A stretch of DNA of 41,707 nt from Methanobacteriota archaeon (GTDB lineage: Archaea; Thermoplasmatota; Thermoplasmata; Lutacidiplasmatales; UBA184). Within the stretch, counting starts at the first letter, position 1. Every line of letters begins with the position of its first letter. This document shows positions 3 through 39,932 of the stretch, in pieces. The position numbers were made by a program, and so were the translations under genes. Where the stretch lies: the NCBI GenBank assembly GCA_013290045.1, contig JABCYU010000005.1, positions 1-41,707 of the forward strand, given 5' to 3'. The notes under the pieces are model-generated. The model was not told the DNA's origin and did not search any database. It saw only the letters and a list, made by a program, of their open reading frames with translations.

Positions 3-593
3 AGTCTCGTCGGGACACGCGTTTCCAATCGCAAGGGACAGCTGGAGCGTGAGCTTCCGTTCACGCTCAGCGAGCTGTCCGTGATGGCCAGCACCGGGAT
101 GTCGCCGATCGAGCTGGTCCGTCGGATGGCCCGCCGGACTCACGATCCGGCCATGACGGCGGAGTTCCAGAAGATCGTCTACAAGACGGATGTCCAAGGA
201 AAGGACCTCATCACGGCCCTGGCAGAGACGGCGAGGGAATCTCCCTCCGAATCGCTCCGGGAGTCGTTCTGGGACCTCGGCAACATGATCCATCAGGGCG
301 GCAATCTCGACGAGTATCTTCGGAACAAGTCCGACGACGTCCTCAAGCTCAAACGGGCGGTCCAGAAGGAGTTCATCGAGCGGCTGCAGACGTACGTGGA
401 CATGTACTCGAGCCTGGTCCTCATCGGCGTCCTCATGATCGCGGTCGGCGCGTTCTTGATCGACGCCTTCGGCAGCACGGTCGGTGGGTTGGATGCCAAC
501 GCCCTGCTGCTCCTGCTGACCTTCGGGCTGGTGCCCCTATCCGTCGGCATGACGACCGTTCTCATTTCCATGGCGTACGCCCGCGCGGAGTAG
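3..593 (+). CDS. Type II/IV secretion system F-domain membrane protein (TadC/FlaJ-like), 5'-truncated by window edge
   Basis: Frame is open from nt 3 (SLVGTRVSNRKGQLERELPFTLSELSVMASTGMSPIEL...), typical T2SSF motif, C-terminal TM helices. Confidence 0.8.
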   Translation, partial: SLVGTRVSNRKGQLERELPFTLSELSVMASTGMSPIELVRRMARRTHDPAMTAEFQKIVYKTDVQGKDLITALAETARESPSESLRESFWDLGNMIHQGGNLDEYLRNKSDDVLKLKRAVQKEFIERLQTYVDMYSSLVLIGVLMIAVGAFLIDAFGSTVGGLDANALLLLLTFGLVPLSVGMTTVLISMAYARAE

Positions 594-598
594 TGCCG

Positions 599-5931: not shown

Positions 5932-6129
5932 TTCTCCGATTGTTGATTCATTGAGCTCGTGCCCTCCCCGCGAGGCGGGAAACGGCGATTGACCCGCGGA
6001 GTCCGCCAACTTCTGGCCCCTCGGCCTGGAACGCAATCGCCCGTTTTTCCCTGTGAGAAGCGCGGGACTCGCCCGTCTGACCCATGCAATCCGGTCAACC
6101 TTAATAGGCGAGGCGAAACCCGTCCTTGG

Positions 6130-8937
6130 ATGCGCCCAGCGTTAGTTCTGGTCGCAGTCATCGTCGTCGCCTTCGTCGTGGCGAGCGGGCAATCGATCGG
6201 AAGCAACCATCGCGAGAGCGGGATGTCGTCCCACCCGAACCGGGTCATCGCCCCGCTCAACCTACCCACGTCCTTCCAGAACCGGCCCGGCATCGCCCCC
6301 GAGCCCACGGTGCAGGTCCTCTCGTCCGTCACCGTGATCCTTCCCGACGGGAACGTCAGCAACTCATCGGCGCCGATCCAGCAAATCGGAGGGACGTACA
6401 CTCTCGTGGGGGGTTTTACCGGCTCCATTCTGGACGAACGCAACGGGAGCGTGTTGAACGGGAATGGCAAGACGCTGACCCAGTCGGCGGGGACGTCCGC
6501 CGCGATTGTCGCCCTCGACGTCCAGCAGATCGCCATCCGGAACTTCACGCTCGCGGCTCCGGGGACGGGAATACTGCTCGAGGGGGTGCTCGGCGCTTCC
6601 GTGATGGGGAACACGATCGCCAGCACGAACTGGTCCATCGACGCCGTTGACTCCTCTAACCTGAGCGTCGCGGCCAATCAAGCTCCCGGAACGGAAGGGA
6701 CGTTTTTCGCCGGCGATTCCAACCTCACGGTGTTGGACAACAACCTGACGGGATCGACTCAAACCGCCGTGAGCGTCGGTAGTTCATCGACCGTGACCAT
6801 CGTCGGCAACCAGGCGAACGGCTCGCAGGCCGGGGTGGCCGCGAGCCTCTCCGACGGGGTGGTCATCCGGTCCAATGACCTCTCCAGTATCGCGGAGGGG
6901 ATCTACGAGGATGGAGTCACCTCGTCGCGGCTCCAGTCGAACAACCTGGGATTCTCCAATGTTGGGATCAGCATATATCGCGGATATGGGGTTACGGCGT
7001 CGGCGGACTCCGGAAAGGGGGGCCAAGCCGGAATCTCAACGTATCAGACCACGAATTCGGTGTTCAACAGTGAGTCCTTCACCGGATTCGTGACGGGAGC
7101 CGATCTCGAATACGACGTAAACGTCAGCGTCACTTCTTGTGACTTCGCGAGCGCCGCTGACGCGCTCATCCTGGTGAGCTCGACGAATGCCGGGATTCTT
7201 TCGAACAATCTCTCCGCGTTCTCCCATATCGGCCTCCAGGCATCTTATTCTTCCAATCTCACCGTTGGCTCGAACACTCTGCTCGGCGCAGCCCCCAACT
7301 CCGCCGTCGCGATCTCGACATTCGCGGATCACGGCCTCTCGGTGCGCTTGAACCTGGCTCAAGGCGCGCCGATCGGCTTCGAGGACGCATACTCCTCGAC
7401 CCTGACGGTGAGCCTCAACGACTTCTCGAAATCGACCACCGGAGCGGCCGCCATTTCGGTCACGGCGGACACGGCCGTGACCGTATCGTTCAACAACGCG
7501 AGCTCGGCAGGACATGCGGGATTCCAGGCCATCGCGACCCAGGGCCTAGCGGTCGTCTTCAACCGTTTCTCCCACGCCGGATTTTCCGGGATCAATGTCT
7601 CCAATGTGGGATCCGCCGTTATCGAGAACAATACGGTCGATCACGCGGGCCGTTGGGGGATCGACCTCACGGCCTCGACGAGGCTGACCGTGATGTGGAA
7701 TCTCGGGGGTTACGCTTTGGGCCCCAACGGGACGGGAATCATGGCCAGCCTCGTGACCGCCAGCGAGATCGCCCAAAACAATGCGACCAGTTCCACCTTC
7801 GGCCTCTACTTGGAGAACTGCACCGACCTCCAGCTGATCGACAACAACGGTTCCTACGCGTCGGTGGGTTTGGAACTTCTCCACGACGTGAACACCACCG
7901 CCGCGGGAAACTGGTTCGTCGGAGATCACTTGGGCTTCCTGATCTCGGGCAGCAGCAACCTCTGGGTCTACCACAACAACTTCATCGGAGACGCCGGCTG
8001 GGCCAATCCCCCGTCCGTGCAGGTCGTGCATTGGGACGCCGGATACCCCGAGGGAGGGAACTTCTGGGGAAACCACACCGGCCCGGACCAGCTGTCGGGG
8101 CCCACTCAGTCCTGGACGGGACCCGACGGAGTCGTCGACCACCCCCTCCAGATCAACACCTCGAATGTGGACCGATTCCCCCTCACCACCCCGTGGTTCG
8201 GCTACACGCTCACCTTCACCGCCAGCGGGTTGCATTCCTACCCGTGGACCGTTGTCCTGAACGGGGTTCCTTTCCCCTCCTACACCGCGACGTTGGTCAT
8301 CCCCCAGACCAACGGCCCCGGGAGCACCTACACGTTCCGGATCCTACCCGTCCCCGGCTACACGGTGGCCGAACCGACCGCCGGACCGTATCCGGACGAG
8401 CGCAACAACATCTCGATCCTCGTGCAGTTCCAGGCGTTCCTGATTCCGGTGACCTTTACCGCGTACGGGCTGGCCCCCGGCACCCAGTGGTCGATTGTCA
8501 TCGGGTCGACGGTGTTCGGGTCGAACACGAGCGCCGTCGTTACCGCTCTCGCCAACGGTTCGTACAACTACCTGGCCGGAAAGGTCCCTGGCTATCTCCC
8601 CGTGGTCGCGGCGGGGGTCATCTACGTGCAGGGGAGCGCAGTTCAGATCGCCGTCGTGTACGCGGGGGGTGCGCCGGCGAAATCCTCGACCAGCCCGGGT
8701 TGGCTCACCACGATGACGATGGCGATGTTCGCCGCGGGACTTGCGATCGGGGTGGCGGCCACTTGGTTCGCGTTCGGTCCCTTGGAATTCAAACGGAAGG
8801 CGAAGAAACCACCGCCGGCGACGGCTTGGACCGCCCCCACGACCGGTCACCTCGGGGGAAACTCGGGAGGTTCGCCGGACGCTCCGGCCAACTTCGCCCC
8901 CCCTGGGTCGGGTCCCCCCGAACCCCCTTCCCGGTGA
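6130..8937 (+). CDS. NosD-like right-handed parallel beta-helix surface protein with C-terminal TM anchor
   Basis: Many repeats of the form N..S.VG(I/L).....N(L/V)T; C-terminal TM (WLTTMTMAMFAAGLAIGVAATWFAF) and Pro-rich tail; ORF can extend to 5959 but first ATG with signal-like N-terminus is 6130. Confidence 0.7.
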   Translation: MRPALVLVAVIVVAFVVASGQSIGSNHRESGMSSHPNRVIAPLNLPTSFQNRPGIAPEPTVQVLSSVTVILPDGNVSNSSAPIQQIGGTYTLVGGFTGSILDERNGSVLNGNGKTLTQSAGTSAAIVALDVQQIAIRNFTLAAPGTGILLEGVLGASVMGNTIASTNWSIDAVDSSNLSVAANQAPGTEGTFFAGDSNLTVLDNNLTGSTQTAVSVGSSSTVTIVGNQANGSQAGVAASLSDGVVIRSNDLSSIAEGIYEDGVTSSRLQSNNLGFSNVGISIYRGYGVTASADSGKGGQAGISTYQTTNSVFNSESFTGFVTGADLEYDVNVSVTSCDFASAADALILVSSTNAGILSNNLSAFSHIGLQASYSSNLTVGSNTLLGAAPNSAVAISTFADHGLSVRLNLAQGAPIGFEDAYSSTLTVSLNDFSKSTTGAAAISVTADTAVTVSFNNASSAGHAGFQAIATQGLAVVFNRFSHAGFSGINVSNVGSAVIENNTVDHAGRWGIDLTASTRLTVMWNLGGYALGPNGTGIMASLVTASEIAQNNATSSTFGLYLENCTDLQLIDNNGSYASVGLELLHDVNTTAAGNWFVGDHLGFLISGSSNLWVYHNNFIGDAGWANPPSVQVVHWDAGYPEGGNFWGNHTGPDQLSGPTQSWTGPDGVVDHPLQINTSNVDRFPLTTPWFGYTLTFTASGLHSYPWTVVLNGVPFPSYTATLVIPQTNGPGSTYTFRILPVPGYTVAEPTAGPYPDERNNISILVQFQAFLIPVTFTAYGLAPGTQWSIVIGSTVFGSNTSAVVTALANGSYNYLAGKVPGYLPVVAAGVIYVQGSAVQIAVVYAGGAPAKSSTSPGWLTTMTMAMFAAGLAIGVAATWFAFGPLEFKRKAKKPPPATAWTAPTTGHLGGNSGGSPDAPANFAPPGSGPPEPPSR

Positions 8938-20112: not shown

Positions 20113-21417
20113 CTACCCGACCCGTTCCCAACGCTCCAGCTTCTGGACCGCGGAGAGCGTCGACCCTCGCTGGATCTCCTCGCGGACCCGGTTCTCGTGC
20201 TCGAGCACGTCGAGGGAACGGTTCGCGATCTCCTGGGCCCGTTCTCGCGGCACGACGACCAGGCCGCTCAGGTCGCCGACGACCCAGTCCCCCGGGCGCA
20301 CCCGCTGGCCGCCGACGACGACATCGACCCCGATCTCGCCGAGCCCCTTCGGCTCACCGGCGTTCGGGGAGAGGAACCGGCTGAACACCGGGAATCCGAG
20401 GGCCAGGATCGCGTCGATGTCCCGGGCCGCCCCGTCGATCACGACGCCGGAGACCTTGCGGCCGTGGGCGCTCCAGCTCGCGAGCTCGCCCCAGATCGCG
20501 GTGTGGCCCCCACCGGCGTCGATCACGATCACGTCCCCCGGCCCCGCCCGGTCGATCGCTTCGACCGGTTTCGCCCAGTCCCCGTCGATCGTCGCGACGG
20601 TCACCGCCGGTCCGACGACCCGCCGGTTCGGGTCGCTCAGGTGGGGAACGATCCCGTGCATCGCCCCCTGGCGTTGCATCGCATCGGAGATATTCGGGGT
20701 GGAGACCTTCAGGAACGCCTCCCGGACCTCGGTACCCGAGTACCGTCGGAACAGTTCCGTCGCGACCTCTTTCTCCGAGTCGATCGCCGAACGGATGCGC
20801 CGGGTGGCCCCCGTGATGTCCGCGCTCTTCGTGATCGCGCCCCCCACGATCAGGATCCGCGCGCCGGCCCGGGTCGCGGCGGCCACGCTCTCGCTGTTGA
20901 GCCCGCCGGCGACCGCCACCGGGACGGGCGAGCCGTGGGCCAGCTGCTTCAGCAATTCGAACGGGGTCTTTCCCGCCATCTGCATGTCGATGCCGACGTG
21001 CCAGCAGACCGCCGCCACTCCCAGCTCGGCGACCTTCCGGCTCCGGGCGACGGGGTCAGCGACGTTGAGGAGGTCGACGACGATCTCCGCCCCGTACTTC
21101 TCCCCCCCGCGGACGGCGTCGGCGATCGTGTCGTCGTCGGCCGTCCCGAGAACGGTGACGATCTCAGCGCCCGCCTTCGCGGCGATCTCGACCTCGAAGG
21201 CGCCGGTGTCCATCACCTTCATATCGGCGACGATCCGATGCCCGGGGAACTCCTTCTTCAGCTGGCGGACCGCGTCCAACCCCTCGCTCTTGATGAGCGG
21301 AGTCCCGGCCTCGACCCAGTCGGCCCCGCCTTCGACCGCCTCCCGGGCGGCCGGGATCGCCCTGGAGAGGTTCTCGAAGTCCAGCGCGACCTGCAAGACG
21401 GGGCGGTCGAGCCGCAT
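20113..21417 (-). CDS. 3-hexulose-6-phosphate synthase fused to RraA-like domain
   Basis: N-terminal LQVALDFENLSRAI...VEAGTPLIKSEG...VADMKVMDTG (HPS); C-terminal PNISDAMQRQGAMHGI...DAGGGHTAIWGELAS (RraA family). Confidence 0.9.
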   Translation of the reverse strand: MRLDRPVLQVALDFENLSRAIPAAREAVEGGADWVEAGTPLIKSEGLDAVRQLKKEFPGHRIVADMKVMDTGAFEVEIAAKAGAEIVTVLGTADDDTIADAVRGGEKYGAEIVVDLLNVADPVARSRKVAELGVAAVCWHVGIDMQMAGKTPFELLKQLAHGSPVPVAVAGGLNSESVAAATRAGARILIVGGAITKSADITGATRRIRSAIDSEKEVATELFRRYSGTEVREAFLKVSTPNISDAMQRQGAMHGIVPHLSDPNRRVVGPAVTVATIDGDWAKPVEAIDRAGPGDVIVIDAGGGHTAIWGELASWSAHGRKVSGVVIDGAARDIDAILALGFPVFSRFLSPNAGEPKGLGEIGVDVVVGGQRVRPGDWVVGDLSGLVVVPRERAQEIANRSLDVLEHENRVREEIQRGSTLSAVQKLERWERVG

Positions 21418-21562: not shown

Positions 21563-22330
21563 GTGACCTCGCCCCCGTACCCGATGATCCCGCAGTGGGA
21601 CGAACTGTTCCGTCGCCAGGGGGCCGTCCGATACGAGGAGATGCATGCGATCCTCGCCCGGAGCTGGGAGGAGTGCCACCGGGTGCTCGTCGACGGCGGG
21701 ATCCTGGCCGTGAACGTCGGCGATGCTATGCGGACCACCGAGGGCGAGTTCCGGCTCTGGCCGAACCACGCCGACGTCACCTTCGCGTGCCGCCGGATCG
21801 GATTTCGTCCGTTGCCCTACATCCTGTGGAAGAAGCCGACGAACCGGCCGAACGCGTTCCTCGGCTCGGGGTTCCTGCCGCCGAACGCCTACGTCACGCT
21901 CGATTGCGAGTTCATCCTGCTGTTCCGGAAGGGGTCGATCCGCCAGTTCCCCCGCAGCGACCCCGGCCGTTACCAGAGCCGCTTCACGAAGGCCGAGCGG
22001 GATCACTGGTTCTCTCAGGTGTGGGAGGACGTCCGAGGGGTCCGGCAGCGGTCCGCCGACGGGCGATCCGGAGCGTTCCCCCCCGAGATCCCCGAGCGGC
22101 TGATCCGGATGTTCTCGGTGACCGGCGACACGGTCCTCGACCCGTTCGCGGGCACCGGCACGACGCTCTGGGCGGCGGCCCGGTTGGGTCGCCGGGCGAT
22201 CGGGGTGGAGATCGATGGGGAACGGGCGGCCGAGCTCACGCGCCGGCTGGCGGCGATGGATCCGGGGGCGCGGCGGCCGCCCGCACCGGCGTCTCCCGGT
22301 GGGCGACCTCCTCGTCGACGGCGTGCTTGA
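21563..22330 (+). CDS. Beta-class DNA methyltransferase (probably N4-cytosine), 5' end uncertain
   Basis: TSPPYP catalytic motif, DPFAGTGTT SAM-binding motif; homology-like sequence continues upstream in frame (EVIEGSAEHLDPVPSNSIALV) with no ATG/GTG/TTG before TAA at about 21442. Confidence 0.8.
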   Translation: MTSPPYPMIPQWDELFRRQGAVRYEEMHAILARSWEECHRVLVDGGILAVNVGDAMRTTEGEFRLWPNHADVTFACRRIGFRPLPYILWKKPTNRPNAFLGSGFLPPNAYVTLDCEFILLFRKGSIRQFPRSDPGRYQSRFTKAERDHWFSQVWEDVRGVRQRSADGRSGAFPPEIPERLIRMFSVTGDTVLDPFAGTGTTLWAAARLGRRAIGVEIDGERAAELTRRLAAMDPGARRPPAPASPGGRPPRRRRA

Positions 22331-22805
22331 GATATCGGAGCGCCGGCCCGCTCAGCCGGTCGAGGTGAAGCAGCAGGTAGTGGAGGTAGATCCGTTCCGG
22401 GCTCCGGGAGGGGCCGGGAGCGTGGGGGGCGACCCCAGGTCCGGCCCGGGGGATCTCCGCGATCACCGAGCGTAGGGTCGCCGGGTGGTGCTCCTGATCC
22501 GGGCCGTGGAGGGCGCGTCCCGTGGCCCCGGTGAGCGGCGGAAAGACGCGCCGGACCGGGTCCCCGTCCTCTTCCTCGGGGGTGGGGGCGGCCGCGTTGG
22601 CGGCGACGGGGTTCGACCGGGCCATCCGGGGACTGCGCGGGTCGCCGTTCGGCAGGAACTTCGCCTGGATGTACGGGTGCACGGGGCGGCCCGGCTCCTG
22701 GAACTCGGTGATCGGCCGCCCCGCGACCTCCTCGACGAGGGTCGTGAGGCTCCAGGAGTCGCGGCGTCGGGCGGGCCGGTCGGCCGACGCGTCGTCTGGC
22801 GGCAC
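22236..22805 (-). CDS. Hypothetical protein, terminal gene of the DNA-transfer-like cluster
   Basis: 189 aa; GTG start about 25 nt downstream of a TATATA box (22829-22837, read on minus strand). Confidence 0.5.
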   Translation of the reverse strand: MPPDDASADRPARRRDSWSLTTLVEEVAGRPITEFQEPGRPVHPYIQAKFLPNGDPRSPRMARSNPVAANAAAPTPEEEDGDPVRRVFPPLTGATGRALHGPDQEHHPATLRSVIAEIPRAGPGVAPHAPGPSRSPERIYLHYLLLHLDRLSGPALRYLKHAVDEEVAHRETPVRAAAAPPDPSPPAGA

Positions 22806-22857
22806 GCGGGCGATTCCGCCTTGGGCCTGTATATAGGGAGACGGTGGACGCGAAGAG

Positions 22858-24555
22858 CTACCGACCCTCCGGGGGGAGGTCGGCCCCCCGGACGGCCCCG
22901 GCGGGGGAGAGGGCCCGGGTGAGAAACTCGTACTCCGGCGTCGAGGCGACGAGCGCGATCGGGAGGTGGGCTTCGCCGAACCGTAGCAACCCCTCGGAAT
23001 ACCCTGCCTCCTTCGGAAGTCGGGCGCGGGGAAGCCATTCGGACTCCGCCTCGGTGAGGCCGAAGAACTCGCGGCACTCGACGGAGACGTTCGGCAGCCG
23101 CAGCAGCACCGTCGCCCGGAGGTTCCGGAGCAGGGAACGTCCGGATTCGTTCGACAGGAAATCGTCCGGGTTTTGGCTCACGACGAGGACGCCGGCACCG
23201 TAGTGCCGCACGTGGCGGACGAGGCGGTCGAAGAACGCCGCCGTCGCCGGATGGCCGGCCAGCAGGTGGGCCTCGTCGACCACCAGCAGCTTCGGTCCGG
23301 CGTTCGCCCGGATCCGGCCGTAGACGGCATCGAACAGGTAGGCGAGATGGAACGGACGATGGTCGTCGGAGACACCGGAAAGGTCGATGCTCACGGGCGA
23401 CGACCCCCAGCTCGCCGTCGTCGGACCGTTCAGGTGCCGGAGCGAACCTGTCTCGAACACCTCGAAGAGGGCGTTCAACCTCCCCGGGGTGGAGCTGCGC
23501 GACCTCAGCTCCCGGGCGAGATCGGAGAGCCTCGGGACCTCTGGACCGGCCCGATAGAGCCGGCTCACGGCCGCATCGAGCGCGGCGACCTCTTCGTCGG
23601 CGAGACTCGGGAAGAGCGCCCGGAGCAGCGAGCCGACGCGGGCGGCCTTCTCGGCCCGGTCCCCTCCGGTGCTCGCCGGGTCGAGCGGGTTCCAACGGAC
23701 GTCGCTCCCCTCGGCAACGGTCAGGACGCTCCCGCCGAGCGCCCGGGCGAGCCCGCCGAACTCCCCCAGAGGGTCGAGGATGAACACCTCGACCTCCGGT
23801 CGCATCCACCGGGTGCGAAGGATCGTGAGGGCGGTGGCGAACGATTTGCCGGATCCGGTCGTGCCGAAAACGCCCCACGATTGGCTGGCGTGCCGCCACC
23901 GGTCGAGGAACACCGGCGACGCATCCTCGAGGAGGAGTCCCAGAAGGATCCCGCCGGGTTCGGCGACCGTCTCGTCGACGAACGGGAAGAACGCGCCGAC
24001 GCCGTCCGTGTGGAGCGTGTGCCAATAGCCGGGAGGACGCGCCGCGGTGCCGGCGAGGTCGGGAGCCGCCGTGACGGCCGCGACCTCGTAACCCGGGACC
24101 CGGGTCCGGAATCCGAGCACCGAGAGACGGCGGACCAGCTCGGTGCGGAACCGCTCGACGCGCGAGCGGTTCGTCCCGAGGCAGTGGAAGCTCATCCCGA
24201 CCCGCCACAGTTCCTGCTCGCGGGCGGCGACCTGACGTCCGAGGTCCTGGGCGCTCTCGGACTCCCGGACCAGCTGCGCCGGTCGGCGGCCGGTCGACCC
24301 TTCGCCGGTGGCGAGCTCGGCTTCGGCGACGGCGTGCGCCGCGTGGAGCATTTCGACGGCGGCCGTCGGCTCGATGCGATGGAACCGCAGGCGAAGCTCG
24401 ATCGGGGCGGACGTGGGCAGTACGCGGCCGAGGAACCCGAACGGGACCTCGGAAGGGAGCTCCGGGACGAGCAGCGGGGCATCGAACCGACACCCCCGTC
24501 GGATCCAGCCGGCCCCTTCGAACGTGGCGGGCCCCTGCTCCCGGGGGCCGGTCAT
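22858..24555 (-). CDS. VirB4/HerA-type conjugation-like ATPase
   Basis: Walker A GVFGTTGSGKSFA, Walker B KLLVVDEAHLL, VLVVSQNPDDFL; ATGA overlap with preceding gene. Confidence 0.85.
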   Translation of the reverse strand: MTGPREQGPATFEGAGWIRRGCRFDAPLLVPELPSEVPFGFLGRVLPTSAPIELRLRFHRIEPTAAVEMLHAAHAVAEAELATGEGSTGRRPAQLVRESESAQDLGRQVAAREQELWRVGMSFHCLGTNRSRVERFRTELVRRLSVLGFRTRVPGYEVAAVTAAPDLAGTAARPPGYWHTLHTDGVGAFFPFVDETVAEPGGILLGLLLEDASPVFLDRWRHASQSWGVFGTTGSGKSFATALTILRTRWMRPEVEVFILDPLGEFGGLARALGGSVLTVAEGSDVRWNPLDPASTGGDRAEKAARVGSLLRALFPSLADEEVAALDAAVSRLYRAGPEVPRLSDLARELRSRSSTPGRLNALFEVFETGSLRHLNGPTTASWGSSPVSIDLSGVSDDHRPFHLAYLFDAVYGRIRANAGPKLLVVDEAHLLAGHPATAAFFDRLVRHVRHYGAGVLVVSQNPDDFLSNESGRSLLRNLRATVLLRLPNVSVECREFFGLTEAESEWLPRARLPKEAGYSEGLLRFGEAHLPIALVASTPEYEFLTRALSPAGAVRGADLPPEGR

Positions 24556-24905
24556 GGCGCCCCCCGACCCGAGCGTCGCGCGGTCCACCAGAGGACGCCG
24601 CTCGCCGCTCCCAGGCAGACTCCGCCCCACTCCCCGAGGAGCCGAGGGTCACCGAACACGATCGCCCAGAGCGCCAGCAATAGACCCGACCCGGCGACGG
24701 CTCGGATCGCCTTCGGCCCGGTCCGCGTTCCGCGGTGGCGTCTCGACCCTTCGGCGATCCACAGGCTGAGGGTGAACGCCGCGAGGACGACGGTCAGCCC
24801 GACGAAATATGGGTCGGCGACCGACAGGAACCCGGAGAGGACCGCGAACCCGGCGCAGGTGGGGAGCGGCTCCAAGTTCGGCGTCCAGGCGTCGGCCACC
24901 GTCAC
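24552..24905 (-). CDS. Small multi-TM membrane protein of the transfer-like operon
   Basis: VTVADAWTPNLEPLPTCAGFAVLSGFLSVADPYFVGLTVVLAAFTLSLWIAEG...; coupled by GTGA and ATGA overlaps. Confidence 0.65.
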   Translation of the reverse strand: MTVADAWTPNLEPLPTCAGFAVLSGFLSVADPYFVGLTVVLAAFTLSLWIAEGSRRHRGTRTGPKAIRAVAGSGLLLALWAIVFGDPRLLGEWGGVCLGAASGVLWWTARRSGRGAP

Positions 24906-25678
24906 GTGGCGGCTCCCGACGGCGATTCGAATCCCAGGCGACGTATCGCCGTTTCGAGCTCCGCGCCCCGGAGGCGACGGACGGCGACGCCCAGCTCCCC
25001 GAGGGCGATGCGGACCGCGCTGACCTGCGCTTCCAGCCGCGCGATCGGCTCCCCGTCGCCGACCCGCGCGGCGAGGTAGACATCGACCCGACGGACGGAG
25101 CGCCGGCGGCACAACAGCCGGACCAGCGCCTGGTACCCCGCCCGGGCCTCTCGTTCCGCCGCGTCCGCCCCCGAGGCCGTCGGACCCACGAACGGTCCGG
25201 CGGGGATCGGCTCGACCCCGACCCGAAGGAACGCCCCATGGTCGAGGGCGCGCAACATCTCGCGGTATCGCTGGAACCGGCGGCGGGCATCGTCCGGCGG
25301 CAGGAACGCGACCGGGGTTCCTCCTGCCGCAAGGACGGCGAAGCACGGACCGCCCTCGATCCGCATCACGCCCCCCCGGACCCGCGCGGACGGTCCGGGG
25401 GCTCCACCCCACCGACTGCGCCAGCGCCAGCGGCAGTAGTCCGCGAACAATCGGTCCAGCCCGCGACCGTCCGGCTGGTAGGTGGCGAAGACGAATCCGC
25501 CGCCGACGAACGGGATCCACGCCGCCGGGGTAACGAGCCCCGCCACGACCCCCCCGATGGCGGCGTAGGTGACGAACTTGAGTGCCTCGCGCGCCGAGGG
25601 AAACGGTCCGAGCCTCAATCGGCGTCCGGTCGGCTCGGGGAGAGAGACGACGAGCGGGTCCGACCGGCTCCCGCTCAC
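24902..25678 (-). CDS. PrgI-like membrane protein of type IV secretion/conjugation-like system
   Basis: VVSLPEPTGRRLRLGPFPSAREALKFVTYAAIGGVVAGLVTPAAWIPFVGGGFVFATYQPDGRGLDRLFADYCRWR: two TM helices followed by cytoplasmic domain; GTGA overlap. Confidence 0.6.
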   Translation of the reverse strand: MSGSRSDPLVVSLPEPTGRRLRLGPFPSAREALKFVTYAAIGGVVAGLVTPAAWIPFVGGGFVFATYQPDGRGLDRLFADYCRWRWRSRWGGAPGPSARVRGGVMRIEGGPCFAVLAAGGTPVAFLPPDDARRRFQRYREMLRALDHGAFLRVGVEPIPAGPFVGPTASGADAAEREARAGYQALVRLLCRRRSVRRVDVYLAARVGDGEPIARLEAQVSAVRIALGELGVAVRRLRGAELETAIRRLGFESPSGAAT

Positions 25679-26808
25679 GGCTCCTCTCCGCGGATCCCCA
25701 GGGAATACGGCCGGTATCCGGAGACCCGACGTCGGAGGCCCTGGACCGCCTGGGGAACGTGGCGGAGCAGGTGGCCGGTGCTCCGCCCCAGGACGTCGGC
25801 GGCCAGCACGGGGATCGTGGCGGGAAGGGCGCCCGCCGCCCCCGCCGCGCCGACCCCCTGCAACAGCTGCGCCGGCCCCTTGACCGACCCGGGGCGGGCC
25901 AGCGGCCGAAGGAAGCTGTTCACGCTCGCCGATCCGGCCGCCAGGCCCCGCTGGATCCCGCCGGTCACCGCGCTCCCGCCCGAGGGGAACCCGACGGAGG
26001 TGAGCTGGGCCCCGGCGATCGACAATAGGGAGGGAGCCGAAACCGCGACGGTGAGGTAACCGAGCAGCAGGAGGATGTTCGGCGAGCCGACGGCGAGCTC
26101 GAGGGGAATCACGACCAGGCATGGGAGGAACGCGAGTTCGCCGAACAGGATCCACGCGCGCCGGGCCAGCGGGGCCAAGGTCGGGATCGGCCAGAGCAAT
26201 GTGAAGATCGGCAGGACGACGAGGAGGACGCCGAGCAGGGCGTCCCGCAGCGCGACCGCCGCGGCGAGGATCAGCACCATCGAGAACAGGGCGAACGTGA
26301 TCACGAGGGCCAGCACCCCGTTGTCCCAGGAGAAGCCGAGCGCCCCGAACCCGTCGAGGTTCTGCCAATGCTGCCAGGCGCCTCCGTCGAACCCGGCGAC
26401 GACCGGATAGGTGGCGCCGGCCACCCCGAGCAGGGCACCGGCGATCGGAACGGCGAAGTTCGCGACGAGGACCGCCAGGACGAGCCGGGGGACGAGCGAT
26501 TCCAAGGGGGCCCCGATCCGGGGAACGAGGACCCGGGTGAGGTAGACCAACCCCACCCCGAAGGCCACCACGGCGACGGCGGGGTCGACCACGTGACCGA
26601 CCAGGTACGCGCTGAACGACGCCGCCTCGGTCAGGAAGGTCGGCGGTGCCCCCGGCGTCGGCGGCAGGGGAGGGTACAACGCGGCCGGAGCCATTTCGGG
26701 GACCAACAGGCCGTCGTACGTCGGCCCAGTGACGGCCGCGATCGCCGCCGTAAGCCCGGCGAACAGCGCGAACAGCACGCCCCGGACGACATCATCCCAC
26801 CCGACCAT
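25675..26808 (-). CDS. Polytopic membrane protein, VirB6/TrbL/CedA-like
   Basis: 377 aa with at least 6 hydrophobic helices; position between VirB2-like and PrgI-like genes. Confidence 0.6.
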   Translation of the reverse strand: MVGWDDVVRGVLFALFAGLTAAIAAVTGPTYDGLLVPEMAPAALYPPLPPTPGAPPTFLTEAASFSAYLVGHVVDPAVAVVAFGVGLVYLTRVLVPRIGAPLESLVPRLVLAVLVANFAVPIAGALLGVAGATYPVVAGFDGGAWQHWQNLDGFGALGFSWDNGVLALVITFALFSMVLILAAAVALRDALLGVLLVVLPIFTLLWPIPTLAPLARRAWILFGELAFLPCLVVIPLELAVGSPNILLLLGYLTVAVSAPSLLSIAGAQLTSVGFPSGGSAVTGGIQRGLAAGSASVNSFLRPLARPGSVKGPAQLLQGVGAAGAAGALPATIPVLAADVLGRSTGHLLRHVPQAVQGLRRRVSGYRPYSLGIRGEEP

Positions 26809-26820
26809 CGCTCCGTCCGG

Positions 26821-27198
26821 TCAGCTCCCCGTCAGCACCCAGCGGGCCAGCCCCCAGGCGAGCCCCGTGAACGCGGCGGTGAACAACAGCGTCCCGACGA
26901 GGGCGTCCCGCGCCCGATCCTTCGCCTGGATCTTCTTGGTCACGTCGTTCGAGAACCAGCTCAGGGCGACGCGGGCCCAGACGATCGCGAGCAGCGCGCT
27001 TCCCGAGAGGCCGAGAAGGGTGACGAGTCGCTGGAGCGCGGCGGAGAAGTTGCTGACCGCGCTCGGGTCCGCGGCGATCACGACGTGCCCGGGAGCGGAC
27101 GGCGCGGGGAACGCGGCCGGGATCCCGGTCGACCCCAGCAGGAGCAGGAGCGGCACCAGGGCGGCCCCCGGCCCGATGAAGCGGCGAAGGAGGATCAT
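26821..27198 (-). CDS. Small membrane protein, VirB2/TrbC pilin-like
   Basis: MILLRRFIGPGAALVPLLLLLGSTGIPAAFPAP...LVTLLGLSGSALLAIVWARVALSWFSNDVTKKIQAKDRARDALVGTLLFTAAFTGLAWGLARWVL: signal peptide, two TM helices separated by a short basic loop. Confidence 0.55.
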   Translation of the reverse strand: MILLRRFIGPGAALVPLLLLLGSTGIPAAFPAPSAPGHVVIAADPSAVSNFSAALQRLVTLLGLSGSALLAIVWARVALSWFSNDVTKKIQAKDRARDALVGTLLFTAAFTGLAWGLARWVLTGS

Positions 27199-29438
27199 GG
27201 CTCCACCCCTGGCGGGGATCGGGGATCGTGGGCCGATCCTCCGCTCCACCGCAGCAGCATCTCCCCGTCGCCGCCGTTCTCGGTCCGGATCTTTCCCGCC
27301 CGACTCCACCGCTCGACCGCGGCGATCGCCGCGTCCGCGTCGACGCCCTCCTCCTCGGCCAGGAACGTGAGCGTGTCCCGCTCGAGCTCCCCGGAATCCT
27401 CGAGGATCCGCCGGACCACGGCCATCCCGGCGGATCCCGGAGGCGGGGTGGGCCGCGGGGGCGTGGCCGGGCGACGGAACCGAACTCCCGCCCAGACCCC
27501 GACGACCGCTAGCGCCGCGATGATCGCCCAACTCCAGGAGGCTCCCGAGGCGACCCCCGAGCTCGGGGGATTCGACGGGCCAACCGGGGCGGGGCCCGAT
27601 TCGACGAGGACGTCGCCCGTGGCATTCGCCTGGGCCGTGAGGGCATCGGTCACCCATAGCCGGAAGGTGAGGTACCCGGCATCGTGCGGTGTCGCCGTGA
27701 AGTCGAACGTTCCGGCCCCCGAGAGATTGCCCAACCCCGACTCGCCGTCCGACATCGTCCAACCGTAGTCGTACGGCGGAACGCCGCCGGCCAGCAGTCC
27801 GCTCAGCTGGAGCGGCGCGCCGGACACTGCCGGCGAGCCGACGACGGCGACGAGCGGCCGAAGCGGCGGCAGGATCCTCACCGAGGCGTTGCCGGTCGTG
27901 CTGATCCCGTTCGCGTCGGTGAACGTGGCGATGACCGTGAGGTTCCCCGCGGCTTCGACCGCCCCGGAGAGGCTGACGAGCCCGTCCTCGAGGAGCAACC
28001 CCGACTCGGTCGAGGGCGAAGCCACCAGCTCGGTCGGGACGAGCGACCAACGGAACGGCGGGGTCCCGCCGACCACGGTGGCCGTCACCCGGACCGGCTG
28101 ACCGGCCTCCGCTTCAGGCGGGGTGGCCGATACGACGCTCGCCGGAAGCGCGTGAACCGGGGCGAGCGGCGCGGCGGTCGTCTGGTTCGCGCCGAGCGCG
28201 TCGACGATCGTCGCCGAGAGCCACCCGGCGCCGGCCGAAGCGGCCGTCGCCGGCTCGAGGTAGCTCCCGTCGCTGGCGAGCGTCGTCGAACTGTTGGAGC
28301 CGGCGGGGGCGATCCCCCAGCCGACCCGGAACGGACCGACGCCACCGGTGACGTTGAACCGGACCGGAAAGGCGACGCCGGAATCGCACCCCGCCGGCGG
28401 GACCAGAACTGAGAGGGTGGGGGGACGGACGACCTGCAGCTCGATCGACGCCGTGACGAGCTCGCCGAGGACGTCGTCGACCTCGATCGAGGCGTTGAAG
28501 ATCCCGGTGCTCCCGACGACCAGACCCCACGAGTCGCCGATGAACGGGGCGCCCGGTCCCTTCCAGTGGACGTCGTACGGGGCCTCGCCTCCGGAGACGT
28601 TCGCCGTCAGGACGAACGGACGCCCGGCATCGACGGACGGCCCCGGCCCCTCGATGACCGCGACGAGTCCCGAGGCGACCGTCATCGGCCGGCCCGAGCT
28701 CTCGTTGAGGCCGTGGCCCTGGCTGTCCTCGATCCCCAAAGCCGGAGCGAACGAACCGGCGGCGTAGCGGTGGACGGTCTCGCCCGGACCGGAGGCATCC
28801 TGGGTGAATTGGGAGCTGGTCCCGTCGCCGAACGTCACCGTCACCCGGTACGGAGGGAGGCCGCCCGAGAGCTGCCAGCCGACCAACACGGGCGCCCCGG
28901 GGACGGCGGGGTCGGGCGTCAGGTACGGCCCGGCCAGGTTCGTCGTGGGGAGGATGGTGACGCCGGCCGAGCCCTGCGCCCAGTCGCTCTCCTCGGTGCC
29001 GGAGCAGGCGAGGATCACCGTGCCATCGACGGAGAGCTGGCCTAGCGAACCCGACTCCGAAGCGAACGTGGTGTAGGCGACGCTGGGGCCCGCGCTGCGG
29101 TTCAGGAACCCAGCGACCGCCGCCCAACCCGGGAGCCACCAGTTCGCCGTCAGGTCCGCGACGGAACACCCGGACGGCACGCCCACCACCGCGACGGTGA
29201 ACACCGCGGTCGAGGAGGCCATCATGGTCCATGATCCCGGGACGATGGCGAGGGAGAGGTTCTCGGAACTTCCGGCGGTCCCGGCCCCGGCTTCCCGGGG
29301 CGCCGTGGCGGGAGCCGGGGTCATCGGCAGCACGCTCAGCCCCCCGGCGACGAGTGCGGCGAGCACGATCGCCACGAGTTCCCCGAGCCGTCGATCGACC
29401 GTTCCCCGGACCGTTCGCCCCCCGCGCACGTCCCCCAC
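27195..29438 (-). CDS. PKD-repeat surface protein with C-terminal TM and cytoplasmic winged-helix-like tail
   Basis: Repeated GG.PPY.....FGDG and GGxPPF motifs; TM WSWAIIAALAVVGVWAGV; tail MAVVRRILEDSGELERDTLTFLAEEEGVDADAAIAAVERWSRAGKIRTEN. Confidence 0.7.
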   Translation of the reverse strand: MGDVRGGRTVRGTVDRRLGELVAIVLAALVAGGLSVLPMTPAPATAPREAGAGTAGSSENLSLAIVPGSWTMMASSTAVFTVAVVGVPSGCSVADLTANWWLPGWAAVAGFLNRSAGPSVAYTTFASESGSLGQLSVDGTVILACSGTEESDWAQGSAGVTILPTTNLAGPYLTPDPAVPGAPVLVGWQLSGGLPPYRVTVTFGDGTSSQFTQDASGPGETVHRYAAGSFAPALGIEDSQGHGLNESSGRPMTVASGLVAVIEGPGPSVDAGRPFVLTANVSGGEAPYDVHWKGPGAPFIGDSWGLVVGSTGIFNASIEVDDVLGELVTASIELQVVRPPTLSVLVPPAGCDSGVAFPVRFNVTGGVGPFRVGWGIAPAGSNSSTTLASDGSYLEPATAASAGAGWLSATIVDALGANQTTAAPLAPVHALPASVVSATPPEAEAGQPVRVTATVVGGTPPFRWSLVPTELVASPSTESGLLLEDGLVSLSGAVEAAGNLTVIATFTDANGISTTGNASVRILPPLRPLVAVVGSPAVSGAPLQLSGLLAGGVPPYDYGWTMSDGESGLGNLSGAGTFDFTATPHDAGYLTFRLWVTDALTAQANATGDVLVESGPAPVGPSNPPSSGVASGASWSWAIIAALAVVGVWAGVRFRRPATPPRPTPPPGSAGMAVVRRILEDSGELERDTLTFLAEEEGVDADAAIAAVERWSRAGKIRTENGGDGEMLLRWSGGSAHDPRSPPGVEP

Positions 29439-29501: not shown

Positions 29502-30158
29502 TCAGCCGGCGACGATCATCGCCACGTGGTCGCGGGCGAACGGGGAGAGGTCCACCGTCGCTCGGACCTTCCAGCCCCGCTTCTCGAGGGTACGGCGCGC
29601 CTCGGCGACGATCGATGGTGCCGGCCGTCGCTGCGTGACCGACCGCACCTTGAGCATGAGGATCCCGCGCCCCCCCGCGGCGAGGCACGCCTCCGCGTTC
29701 TCGGCGAAGATCTGGGCTTGCGTTCGCTGGGCGACGTCCTGGTAGAGCAGGTCGACCTCGCCTACATCGGCCCGGTATCGCTCCGGCAGCTGCGCGTCGG
29801 CGAGCAGCGGATAGAGGTTTGCCCGCCGTCGGCAGAGGGCGAGGAGCGGGGCGAACGACACTGGGCTTTTCTCGACGACGTACAGAGACGCCTCCGGGAG
29901 CGCATCGGAGAGATGGCTCACCGTCGTCCCGTGCGCCCCCCCGAGATAGAGGAGGGACCGGATCGTCGTGAACCACGGTTCGGGAGGGGCCTTCAGCAGC
30001 AGGGCGGCGAGCTTCGACCTCCACGGGTCCCAGTGCCGGTACTCCTCGTCCCCCTCTCGGACCAACTCCTCGCCGTAGACCCGCTCGCCGGGCCGGGCGT
30101 TCCGGGTGTAGAGCTCCTTGCCCCGCCGGAACACCTCCCCCCACGCCGTCCGGTCCAC
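29502..30158 (-). CDS. flpA: Fibrillarin-like rRNA/tRNA 2'-O-methyltransferase
   Basis: LLYLGGAHGTTVSHLSDALPEASLYVVEKSP...EVDLLYQDVAQRTQAQIFAENA. Confidence 0.9.
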   Translation of the reverse strand: MDRTAWGEVFRRGKELYTRNARPGERVYGEELVREGDEEYRHWDPWRSKLAALLLKAPPEPWFTTIRSLLYLGGAHGTTVSHLSDALPEASLYVVEKSPVSFAPLLALCRRRANLYPLLADAQLPERYRADVGEVDLLYQDVAQRTQAQIFAENAEACLAAGGRGILMLKVRSVTQRRPAPSIVAEARRTLEKRGWKVRATVDLSPFARDHVAMIVAG

Positions 30159-37252: not shown

Positions 37253-39778
37253 CTATCCTGACGCCCCCGGGGGCGGGTTCGCCGGAGGAGGCGCGACGGT
37301 CGCCGGAGGGCTGGGACCGCCGGAGGGCGGGCGGCGCCGCCGGTACCGTAGCCCGATGGCGACCGCGACGACGGCCGCGATCGCGAGCCCGGCGAGCAGA
37401 CCCCAGACCCAGGGGCTGGACGACGTTCCCGAGCTTCCGGAGGCAGGAGCCGTCGCGGAGGTGACCGTGACGGTCAGATTGCGTTCGATGCCGCCGCCGC
37501 CCGAGTCGTTGATCCACGCCGTCACGCGGTAGCTACCGGCAGACGTGAAGGCGTGCGACGCCGGGCTGCCGAAGCCGCTGACGTGGTCCCCGAACGTCCA
37601 CGCGATCGCGTACGGCGGGGTGCCGCTCGTGGCGTTCCCCGAGAACGACACCGCGACCCCCGCGGACGGAGCGAGGGTCGACGCCGCCGCCGTTCCCAAC
37701 AGGGCGGCGTTGACGCGGATGGTCAGGTTGGAAAGCGCCGAGTAGCCCCGAGAATCGGTGAAGTTGAGCCGCGCCGTGTAGCTGCCCGGGTTCGCGAACG
37801 CGTGGGACGGCGCCGAGGCGTTCCCCGTGGCCCCGTCGCCGAACTGCCAGGCGAACGTGTACGGCATGATCCCCGTCACCGAGGCGGAGAAACGTACGGG
37901 CACGGCGACATCGGAGGCCGGCGGGGAGGCATGGAGTTGGGCCGTGACGCCGACCTGGACGTGGATGGGCACCGCGAGGAGGATCGATCCGCCGCCCACG
38001 TCCGTGACGTTCACCGTGGCATTGACCCAGCCCGCCGTCGCGTAGGTGTGCGATGGGGACGCTCCGAGGGCCATGCCCCCGTCGCCGAAGCTCCAGGTGT
38101 AGGTGTACGGCGCGGTCCCTCCCGACGCCGTTGCGTGGAACCCGACCGCGCCGCGTCCCGCCACGACCACGTTCGGAGCGCCGGTCGCCGACGCGTTGAG
38201 GGCCGGGTTCACGGTGAGGATCGTCGCCGGCGCGAACGCGACGACATCGGCGTCGTCGTGGATCCACGTGGTGAGCGATTGGACGCCCGAACACGCGCAC
38301 GACGCCGTCGCGAATCCGACCCCACAGGCCGTGAGGTTCGCATTGGCCCAGCAGGTGAAGGCGGGAGCGGCCCCCCCGTAGACCGTCGCCGAGAACGAGA
38401 TCGTCGCGTTCACGTCGACGGGGTTCGGGGTCGCGGAGACCGAGGTGAACTGGGGCGGAACCTCGTAGACGAACGACTGGTTGTTGGTGACGCCGCAGAG
38501 CAGGCACTCGTCTCCACCGAACAGTCGGATGAAACCGTTCACCGAGGTGTCCGGAACCGCGGCCGCGACGACCGGGAGGGGAGCCGGGAACAGCGGTTGG
38601 AGCTGCCAGCCGGTACTGGCCGAGGTGAGGATGTAGGTCGAATTGGTCCCGAGCAGCCCCGCGCCTCCGCCGCCGAACAGGACGGTCTCGTTGCGTACCG
38701 TATCGAAGGTCATCGACGGGAGGAACAGCGGCACCATCGGGGCGCACCCCCCGCAGGCGGCGGTCTCGTTCTGCCACCCCGAGGAGCCGCCGATGTACTC
38801 CCAGGTCTGGTTCGAAGCGCATTGCAACGTCGAGCATCCCCCGAAGTAGACCGGAACCCCGTGGAGCCGGTCGAACACCATCGCCCCTCCCCAGGTCGGA
38901 GGCGGAGCTCGCGATGGGGAAAGGAGGGTCCAACCCACGCCGTACGTGTACCGATATGTGGAGTTGTAGAGCACCGCGGCCGTCGAATTGTCCCCGCCGA
39001 ACAGGAGAGCGCCGGCGGGGGAGAGGGCCGGGTCGAAGACGAGGCTCGCCCCGAAGCGGGCCGGTGGCGCGACGCAGCCGGTCGTGCACCGACCTGCGAG
39101 GTTCACCCAGCCGTCGGTGAAGTTGAACGCCCACGTATCGTTCAGCTCGCAGAACCCGAAGTAGACCCCTTGACCCCAACTGCATCCGCCGAACAGAAGG
39201 GCGAACCCACCGGAGGCGTCGCCGTACCACGTGAGGGAGGCGAGGTAGCGGGGGGTGGGTGCCCGCGGGTAGTCCGCGGTCAGGTTGATCCAGGCGGCGT
39301 TGGTCCGCTCATACGCCCACGTCTCGTTGGTGGGGCAGACCCCGTAGTAGTTGCATCCCCCGAACGCCAGTACGACGCCGTCGACCGGATCCCACGCCAC
39401 CGATAGGCCCTCGGAACCGGACGGATACGGATAGCTCGCTTCCTTGATCCACGTCCGTTGCGTCACGAGGGCCGGGTGCGCGGGACGGCAATCGGCCGAG
39501 GTGAGTCCGGAGATGGTACAGCCCATGGCGACCCCGGCCGACGGACCGGCGCCGTGGGCGAGGGAGGTGACGGCGGATGCGAGCGGGGAGGACGACGGCG
39601 CGAGCCGGATCGGGTCGGGCGCGATGCTCGGGGTCCGCCCGACGTTGAGAGCCCCGGTGGCCCCCGCCCCCGGCGGAACCATGAGGGAGGCCACGACCAC
39701 GACCGCGAGGAACCCGACCCATCGGACCTTGGCGAAGCGCGTCCCCCGCGGTGGCCTACCCCTCGAAAGATTCGTCAT
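37253..39778 (-). CDS. Surface protein with Kelch-like N-terminal repeats and C-terminal PKD domains, TM-anchored
   Basis: Repeated LLFGGC/ETWAY motifs, then GGTAPYTYTWSFGDGG PKD repeats and TM GLLAGLAIAAVVAVAIGL. Confidence 0.75.
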   Translation of the reverse strand: MTNLSRGRPPRGTRFAKVRWVGFLAVVVVASLMVPPGAGATGALNVGRTPSIAPDPIRLAPSSSPLASAVTSLAHGAGPSAGVAMGCTISGLTSADCRPAHPALVTQRTWIKEASYPYPSGSEGLSVAWDPVDGVVLAFGGCNYYGVCPTNETWAYERTNAAWINLTADYPRAPTPRYLASLTWYGDASGGFALLFGGCSWGQGVYFGFCELNDTWAFNFTDGWVNLAGRCTTGCVAPPARFGASLVFDPALSPAGALLFGGDNSTAAVLYNSTYRYTYGVGWTLLSPSRAPPPTWGGAMVFDRLHGVPVYFGGCSTLQCASNQTWEYIGGSSGWQNETAACGGCAPMVPLFLPSMTFDTVRNETVLFGGGGAGLLGTNSTYILTSASTGWQLQPLFPAPLPVVAAAVPDTSVNGFIRLFGGDECLLCGVTNNQSFVYEVPPQFTSVSATPNPVDVNATISFSATVYGGAAPAFTCWANANLTACGVGFATASCACSGVQSLTTWIHDDADVVAFAPATILTVNPALNASATGAPNVVVAGRGAVGFHATASGGTAPYTYTWSFGDGGMALGASPSHTYATAGWVNATVNVTDVGGGSILLAVPIHVQVGVTAQLHASPPASDVAVPVRFSASVTGIMPYTFAWQFGDGATGNASAPSHAFANPGSYTARLNFTDSRGYSALSNLTIRVNAALLGTAAASTLAPSAGVAVSFSGNATSGTPPYAIAWTFGDHVSGFGSPASHAFTSAGSYRVTAWINDSGGGGIERNLTVTVTSATAPASGSSGTSSSPWVWGLLAGLAIAAVVAVAIGLRYRRRRPPSGGPSPPATVAPPPANPPPGASG

Positions 39779-39932
39779 GGCCCCGTCGGAGCGCCGAACG
39801 CCTCGGGGGATTTGAACCCTCAGCCCATGGGAACCCGACGGGGCTTCAGGGCGCATCGGACTTCACGGACGGTGCCGTCCCCTTTCGCGGCTGCCGTTGG
39901 ACGCGGCCCGGCCGCAGAACGCGGGGCGCGAC

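What the first reader, a model, noticed from the sequence alone, without database searches (positions are those of the whole stretch)
22236..29438. Chromosomal minimal DNA-transfer-like operon without relaxase
Seen: six or seven minus-strand genes with stop/start overlaps (27195/27198 ATGA, 25675/25678 GTGA, 24902/24905 GTGA, 24552/24555 ATGA). They encode a PKD surface protein, a small VirB2-like protein, a polytopic VirB6-like protein, a PrgI-like protein, a small membrane protein and a VirB4/HerA ATPase. No relaxase, coupling protein or integrase is in the window, and the cluster sits next to core genes (flpA, Hps-RraA). Known: crenarchaeal Ced/Ted DNA-import systems use CedA-, VirB2-like and CedB/HerA-VirB4 components homologous to conjugation machinery. 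Inference: a domesticated DNA-exchange or secretion apparatus in a Thermoplasmata-like archaeon with its own PKD adhesin/receptor.
Basis: partly seen in the sequence, partly recalled or inferred. Interest (0 to 1): 0.78.

Follow-up and report, generated by a model that had tools for sequence, protein, structure and literature searches.

The report
Domesticated minimal type IV secretion machine
A soil archaeon carries, fixed in its chromosome, a stripped-down version of the machine that bacteria use for conjugation (pilin, membrane channel, motor and a fast-changing surface receptor) without the genes that would make it a mobile element, so it may be a DNA-exchange device like those known from heat-loving Crenarchaea, though its cargo is untested.

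Summary
Seven co-directional genes (22239-29438, minus strand) encode an Ig/PKD surface protein, a VirB2-type pilin, a VirB6-like channel, a PrgI/VirB3-like protein, a small membrane protein, a VirB4 ATPase and a conserved unknown. Profiles built from relatives tie the pilin to Pfam T4SS_pilin/TrbC, the channel to TrbL/VirB6, and the PrgI-like protein to PrgI plus a cytosolic domain that is a separate gene in a Gram-positive T4SS. The cassette sits between flpA and a DNA methyltransferase/Hps-RraA in about 85% of good-quality genomes of the genus, is under purifying selection, and tracks the housekeeping neighbours: vertical inheritance, not an ICE. The same gene order occurs in at least six Thermoplasmata families, including an Aciduliprofundum-type genome with a probable ICE (relaxase-like gene, coupling protein). 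No relaxase or canonical coupling protein was found in this genome, but a divergent TrwB-like ATPase is conserved 27-45 kb away in relatives. Best reading: a domesticated minimal T4SS, functionally parallel to Ced/Ted, probably exchanging DNA between cells. Cargo and direction are not shown. It is a new variant of a known kind; T4SS parts in Cuniculiplasma and an A. boonei ICE were already published.

The parts
27198..29438 (-). Surface protein: N-terminal signal/TM, Ig/PKD-type ectodomain repeats, one C-terminal TM, then a cytosolic winged-helix-like domain
   Evidence: PF00801 3.6e-6 at 533-604; hydrophobic segments at 16-43 and 628-655; TM plus wHTH-like tail conserved in the genus and in Aciduliprofundum-type genomes; one of the fastest-evolving genes, dN/dS 0.37. 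The wHTH assignment is by eye and by a weak PF22798 match (0.021).
26824..27198 (-). VirB2-type pilin (signal-like N-terminus, two hydrophobic helices around a basic loop)
   Evidence: 21 of 26 family members match PF18895 T4SS_pilin (best 9.3e-9), 5 match PF04956 TrbC/VirB2 (best 9.9e-10); 14 of 26 match NF045849 pilin-like; family profile hits the annotated pilin of a Pontibacillus T4SS at 1.2e-6
25678..26808 (-). Polytopic VirB6/TrbL-like membrane channel protein
   Evidence: 3 of 25 family members match PF04610 TrbL/VirB6 (best 6.6e-4); family profile hits the large membrane proteins in the same position of Pontibacillus (1.8e-8) and Haloprofundus (4.2e-8) T4SS loci; strongest constraint in the cassette, dN/dS 0.12
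24905..25678 (-). PrgI/VirB3-like protein with a hydrophobic N-terminus fused to a cytosolic domain resembling the VirB4 N-terminal domain
   Evidence: Family profile: N-half hits PrgI (0.025), C-half hits the separate 274-aa gene between PrgI and VirB4 in Pontibacillus (1.9e-10); whole profile hits a haloarchaeal 349-aa protein (3.9e-14); PF12666 PrgI in 4 of 23 members, best 0.0026; AlphaFold model (pLDDT 78) gives repeated R388 VirB4 matches, prob 0.87-0.98 but E 0.02-0.16
24555..24905 (-). Small membrane protein, poorly conserved in sequence but fixed in position
   Evidence: Two hydrophobic stretches; same position in genus loci and in the A. boonei-like locus (profile 4.1e-13) and f27 loci; dN/dS 0.49
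22861..24555 (-). VirB4-family ATPase (Walker A GTTGSGKS, Walker B LLVVDEAH)
   Evidence: NF045971 2.6e-43; solved VirB4-like domain 4ag5/4ag6 7.6e-35 over residues 196-544; P-loop G, T, G, K and Walker B DE invariant in alignment A5
22239..22805 (-). Conserved downstream protein of unknown function (motif PERxYLHYLLLHxDRL)
   Evidence: Present after VirB4 in same-genus loci, aligned; no family match
21563..22327 (+). Convergent DNA N4/N6 methyltransferase, constant right-hand neighbour in the genus; relation to the cassette unproven
   Evidence: PF01555 5e-35; conserved at 64-79% identity next to the cassette
20116..21417 (-). Hps-RraA housekeeping gene flanking the cassette
   Evidence: NF005442 2.5e-184; conserved flank
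29505..30158 (-). flpA (fibrillarin) housekeeping gene flanking the cassette
   Evidence: PF01269 1.1e-58; conserved flank

Best explanation
The cassette is a chromosomally domesticated, minimal MPF_FATA-like type IV secretion system. VirB2-type pilins are presumably pulled from the membrane into a short pilus or conduit over a VirB6-like channel. A PrgI/VirB3 anchor, which also carries part of what is elsewhere the VirB4 N-terminal region, holds the VirB4 motor under the channel. The rapidly diverging PKD protein, with its cytosolic winged-helix-like tail, is presumably the contact receptor or adhesin. With no relaxase and no integrase, the machine most likely moves chromosomal DNA between related cells (working like Ced/Ted) rather than transferring itself. 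Shown: component identities, gene order, vertical fixation, purifying selection. Inferred: pilus formation, cargo, direction, receptor role.
For: VirB4. Pilin. VirB6. PrgI/VirB3 plus VirB4-NTD-like domain; apparently fused into one 639-aa VirB4 ORF in G118, length of T. acidophilum. Same order in six Thermoplasmata families and none beyond the class in a 390-genome phylum sample. Fixed locus flpA-cassette-MTase-Hps in the genus. Each family's VirB4 is monophyletic at 99-100%. Distances track Hps/flpA, r 0.52-0.76, p 0.001, and dN/dS 0.12-0.31 for the core machine genes. No relaxase PF03432 and no PF02534 coupling protein in the own genome. Precedent: Ced and Ted also use VirB2, VirB4 and VirB6 homologues without relaxase (PMC9905601).
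Against: No direct evidence on cargo. NurA, proposed to make the ssDNA for Ced/Ted, was not found in this or three other family-f1 genomes. The VirB6 model is poor (pLDDT 56) and PDB profile searches did not reach CedA1/TedC or VirB6. Four good-quality genus genomes lack the cassette, so it is not essential. The DNA methyltransferase is not adjacent in the other examined f1 genera g24, g26-g28.
Confidence: 0.55

Rival explanations
1. A relaxase-less T4SS co-opted to export proteins or toxins, or for contact with other cells, as proposed for Patescibacteria and many MOBless T4SS.
For: Absence of relaxase and of a canonical coupling protein; MOBless T4SS are often protein exporters (PMC3158045); Patescibacteria T4SS have VirB2/VirB3/VirB4/VirB6 and mostly no relaxase (PMC12102498).
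Against: No conserved effector-like gene was recognised in the cassette; T4SS protein export normally also needs a VirD4-type protein; the archaeal precedents with this same minimal set move DNA.
Confidence: 0.2
2. An attachment pilus or adhesion device in which the T4SS parts only build and retract a pilin filament and the PKD protein binds surfaces or partners.
For: Rapid divergence of the PKD protein; pilins fused to ectodomains in Aciduliprofundum-type loci.
Against: The VirB6 channel protein is the most conserved component (dN/dS 0.12), which suggests a translocation pore matters.
Confidence: 0.15
3. The core of a still-mobile integrative conjugative element whose relaxase or integrase lies outside the window.
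For: In an Aciduliprofundum-type genome (G371) the orthologous cassette lies on the same contig as an integrase, a relaxase-like gene and a T4CP; an A. boonei ICE is published.
Against: Constant housekeeping neighbours in over 20 species-level genomes, family monophyly, distance correlation, no relaxase in genus genomes.
Confidence: 0.05

Closest known systems
Ced (Sulfolobales) and Ted (Thermoproteales) DNA-exchange systems
   Same: Chromosomal, relaxase-less set of VirB2-like pilin, VirB6-like channel and VirB4-like ATPase (PMC9905601)
   Different: No sequence membership shown; here a PrgI/VirB3 protein, a small membrane protein and a linked PKD surface protein are present, ParA/Rad50/HerA genes were not seen among the cassette genes, and NurA was not detected in the genome
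MPF_FATA / CD1110-type T4SS of Gram-positive elements (for example the Pontibacillus plasmid locus, L109)
   Same: Order pilin - VirB6 - PrgI - cytosolic domain protein - VirB4, with profile matches gene by gene
   Different: PrgI and the cytosolic domain are fused here; no peptidoglycan hydrolase; not on a mobile element
Haloarchaeal plasmid transfer loci (Haloprofundus, Haladaptatus)
   Same: VirB4 plus a PrgI-VirB4-NTD-like protein, and a VirB6-like protein in Haloprofundus
   Different: Plasmid-borne, different surface and accessory genes, pilin not matched by profile
T4SS gene cluster of Cuniculiplasma divulgatum (CSP5_1185-1189)
   Same: A Thermoplasmata chromosomal cluster with VirB4, multipass and membrane proteins, already annotated as T4SS components (PMC5155288)
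   Different: Described only as an annotation; no PKD protein or class-wide comparison there
Aciduliprofundum boonei ICE
   Same: Same ordered cassette as in G051, inferred to be A. boonei from its 1,486,778-bp length; an ICE in A. boonei was reported in PMC3158045
   Different: There linked to integrase, T4CP and a relaxase-like gene, with five pilin-like genes, four fused to ectodomains

Membership tests
Type IV secretion system (MPF_FATA-like) | VirB4 ATPase | tested here: met
Type IV secretion system (MPF_FATA-like) | VirB6-like polytopic channel | tested here: met
   Through relatives; the window protein alone has no match
Type IV secretion system (MPF_FATA-like) | VirB3/PrgI | tested here: met
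   (weak); position next to virB4
Type IV secretion system (MPF_FATA-like) | VirB2-type pilin | tested here: met
Type IV secretion system (MPF_FATA-like) | VirD4/T4CP coupling ATPase | tested here: inconclusive
   Not in the cassette, PF02534 absent; divergent TrwB-like ATPase elsewhere in the genome
Conjugative element / ICE | Relaxase | tested here: not met
   PF03432 absent in the own genome (90% complete) and in eight close relatives; other relaxase families were not searched
Conjugative element / ICE | Integrase or variable insertion site | tested here: not met
   No integrase among the window ORFs scanned; constant flanks
Ced | CedA, CedA1, CedB and CedA2 sequence homologues | tested here: inconclusive
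   VirB4 matches CedD at only 35.9 bits against a cut-off of 600; no CedA-type match among NCBIfam families; no Ced sequences could be fetched for a profile comparison
Ced | DNA-damage induction and import of DNA | not testable with these tools
   Needs an experiment
Ted | TedC pilin, TedA, TedB with ParA/HerA/Rad50 neighbours | tested here: inconclusive
   Functional parts match in kind; such neighbours were not seen among the cassette genes and direct flanks; pilin profile did not reach solved TedC

The most novel reading that the evidence does not exclude
A third archaeal chromosomal DNA-exchange machine beside Ced and Ted, widespread but patchy across the class Thermoplasmata and derived independently from an ICE-type T4SS, in which a membrane receptor with extracellular PKD domains and a cytosolic DNA-binding domain gates transfer, and a linked TrwB-like ATPase fused to a PD-(D/E)XK-like nuclease prepares the DNA in place of a relaxase.
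Probability: 0.3. Interest if true: 0.8.

Novelty: new variant of a known kind. Interest (0 to 1): 0.55.

Why it matters
If it exchanges DNA, it would extend Ced/Ted-type genome exchange to Thermoplasmata, some of which can be cultivated (a genome with the length of T. acidophilum carries the cassette; Cuniculiplasma has a published T4SS cluster), and make the origin of such systems from ICE-type T4SS directly testable. The same class holds both an apparent mobile form with relaxase-like gene and coupling protein (Aciduliprofundum type) and the fixed form without them.

Tried and rejected
Single-sequence Pfam/NCBIfam/PHROGs searches of the small proteins: no useful match. PDB profile searches for pilin, VirB6 and PrgI: nothing credible. 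AlphaFold of the VirB6-like protein: pLDDT 56, so no fold search was run on it. Foldseek of the PrgI-like model: top hits are amidohydrolases with poor TM-scores; the R388 VirB4 hits are consistent but E > 0.02, so supportive only. An empty site could not be shown: five of the genus genomes without the VirB6 gene also lack a strong Hps match, while two apparent absences, G222 and G070, do carry VirB4 next to Hps and are contig breaks. Chance ORFs considered and rejected: conservation and dN/dS. Still-mobile ICE considered and disfavoured.
Full report
OBSERVATION. Third-position GC is 0.86-0.95 in the annotated frames. Neighbours are flpA on one side and a convergent DNA methyltransferase and Hps-RraA on the other.

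ORGANISM. The closest named relative of the VirB4 protein (80% identity) is on a contig of Thermoplasmata archaeon isolate AcS5-116, a genome listed in the paper that named Ca. Lutacidiplasmatales (PMC9287336). The window is a complete 41.7-kb contig of a 2.2-Mb, 90% complete assembly. That paper's text held no mention of VirB, conjugation, pili or secretion. Assigning the window to Lutacidiplasmatales is an inference from this kinship.

WHAT THE PARTS ARE. VirB4 is clear: CD1110-family VirB4 at 2.6e-43, and the solved VirB4-like domain 4ag5/4ag6 at 7.6e-35 with the family alignment. The other proteins are too diverged to be recognised alone. I collected orthologues from the genus and from distant families and searched with those. 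Of 26 pilin-like members, 21 match Pfam T4SS_pilin (best 9.3e-9) and 5 match TrbC/VirB2 (9.9e-10); 14 match NCBIfam's pilin-like conjugal transfer protein (best 1.9e-5). Of 25 polytopic proteins, 3 match TrbL/VirB6 (6.6e-4). Of 23 PrgI-like proteins, 4 match PrgI (0.0026).

In the other direction, profiles from these alignments were run on the ORFs of a Pontibacillus plasmid T4SS and two haloarchaeal plasmids (E-values refer to the few hundred ORFs searched). The pilin profile finds the annotated pilin (1.2e-6) and its neighbour (3.5e-6). The channel profile finds the large membrane proteins (1.8e-8 and 4.2e-8). The C-terminal half of the PrgI-like profile finds the 274-aa gene between PrgI and VirB4 (1.9e-10), its N-terminal half finds PrgI weakly (0.025), and the whole finds a haloarchaeal 349-aa protein (3.9e-14).

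So the 'PrgI-like' protein is PrgI/VirB3 plus a domain encoded separately in Gram-positives. A medium-confidence model of it (pLDDT 78) repeatedly matches R388 TrwK/VirB4, though never at a significant E-value. In G118 (length 1,564,906 bp, which I recall as that of T. acidophilum) no separate PrgI-like gene is seen and the VirB4 ORF is 639 aa with an extra hydrophobic N-terminal region. This suggests the PrgI-like protein supplies part of what is elsewhere the VirB4 N-terminal region. CedB and CedD are likewise reported to match different parts of the VirB4 N-terminal domain (PMC11868833).

THE SURFACE PROTEIN. It has Ig/PKD-type repeats, a C-terminal transmembrane helix and a cytosolic winged-helix-like tail. 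The tail is conserved in the genus and in two Aciduliprofundum-type genomes. It diverges much faster than the motor: 24-36% identity across most of the genus against 54-65% for VirB4, and dN/dS 0.37 against 0.19. This would suit a recognition role, but that is inference.

WHERE IT OCCURS. The VirB6-like profile hits 117 of 400 Thermoplasmata genomes. In the own genus, 22 of 26 genomes with at least 90% completeness have it (my count). Examined loci show the order pilin - VirB6 - PrgI - (small TM) - VirB4 in families f1, f15, f27, f31 (PrgI-like gene shorter) and, with variations, f19 and f11. A 390-genome phylum sample gave no hit outside the class. In the genus the cassette always lies between flpA and the methyltransferase/Hps pair where contigs allow. 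Protein distances correlate with the housekeeping flanks (r 0.52-0.76 for Hps and flpA, p 0.001), and dN/dS is 0.12-0.31 for VirB6, VirB4, VirB2 and the PrgI-like protein. VirB4 of every family is monophyletic with 99-100% support. This is vertical inheritance.

MOBILE RELATIVES. In G371, an Aciduliprofundum-type genome, the orthologous cassette shares a 35-kb contig with a tyrosine recombinase (PF00589, 1.9e-6), a T4CP-like gene and a relaxase-like gene. In G051 the T4CP matches TrwB_AAD_bind at 2.5e-38 and sits beside the relaxase-like gene (HPHSH motif; PF18555/PF03432 weak, 0.003-0.009), about 40 kb from the cassette. G051 has the length I recall for A. boonei (1,486,778 bp), and an ICE in A. 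boonei was already reported in 2011 (PMC3158045). The fixed version in the window's family and the apparently mobile version thus share the same core.

MISSING PIECES. Relaxase PF03432 and coupling protein PF02534 were not found in the own genome or in most relatives tested; other relaxase families were not searched. PF10412 found an 884-905-aa ATPase at G000:C4:19656-22307 (1.3e-7 in the genome search, 1e-8 on the protein). It is conserved in 10 of the 11 genus genomes sampled and in most other f1 genomes. On shared contigs it lies roughly 27-45 kb from the cassette (G018, G002, G210, G029, G135; positions). It shows similarity to a VirD4-like ATPase encoded directly after VirB4 in f31. Its C-terminus has an RFDTRLPDG ... 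EAEV ... K pattern that looks like a PD-(D/E)XK nuclease (judged by eye). G001 has this ATPase but no cassette, so the two are not strictly coupled. NurA was not detected in four f1 genomes.

MECHANISM. Shown: a minimal T4SS core, fixed and constrained. Inferred: pilin assembly over a VirB6 channel, driven by VirB4 anchored through the PrgI-like protein, with the PKD protein making contact. The likeliest cargo is chromosomal DNA moving between related cells, because the archaeal systems with the same minimal parts list do that (PMC9905601, PMC11868833). Protein export is the main rival.

NOVELTY. Parts of this were known: Ced/Ted; relaxase-less chromosomal archaeal VirB4 and the A. boonei ICE (PMC3158045); and a Cuniculiplasma T4SS cluster (PMC5155288). 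New here, as far as the held library shows: the conserved cassette spread through the class with a defined parts list, the linked PKD/winged-helix surface protein, the PrgI plus VirB4-NTD-like fusion, and the contrast of fixed and mobile forms in one class. Hence a new variant of a known kind.

Noticed in passing
L121:8657-11308 (G000:C4:19656-22307) and orthologues in L123, L124, L125, L126: About 890-aa TrwB/VirD4-like ATPase with winged-helix-like and PD-(D/E)XK-like C-terminal regions, conserved in family f1 and often 27-45 kb from the cassette; candidate coupling ATPase or unrelated (defence or repair) enzyme. G001 has it without the cassette.
   Followed up: partly
L103:8646-11477 (G051) and L107:8106-11232 (G371): Archaeal mobilisation module: ribbon-helix-helix protein, relaxase-like protein with HPHSH motif, and a TrwB-type coupling protein, in Aciduliprofundum-type genomes. 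[quoted passage not shown]
   Followed up: partly
L039:13826-18071 and L085:5460-8678: Pilin-like VirB2 modules at the C-terminus of 320-405-aa ectodomain proteins, in tandem: apparently decorated pilins.
   Followed up: partly
L076:6946-8865 (G118): VirB4 ORF of 639 aa with an extra N-terminal hydrophobic region where other genomes have a separate PrgI-like gene: apparent VirB3-VirB4 fusion in a genome with the length of T. acidophilum.
   Followed up: partly
L081:11954-14038, L083:4410-6446, L092:11332-13365: Family f31 has a VirD4/HerA-like ATPase gene directly after VirB4 in the cassette.
   Followed up: partly
window 593-2026 (+): T2SSF (TadC-like) domain joined to an Ig-like domain, suggesting an archaeal type IV pilus locus about 20 kb from the cassette.
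   Followed up: no
window 37256-39856 (-) and 5959-8934 (+): Other large surface proteins: PKD/Kelch repeats, and a NosD/beta-helix protein.
   Followed up: no
window 22239-22805 (-): Conserved genus protein after VirB4 with motif PERxYLHYLLLHxDRL and no known family.
   Followed up: partly
G001, G013, G183, G206, G282: Genus members lacking the VirB6 gene also lack a strong Hps-RraA match, suggesting loss of the whole region or a distinct subclade.
   Followed up: partly
G000 and three other f1 genomes: NurA (PF09376) not detected.
   Followed up: no
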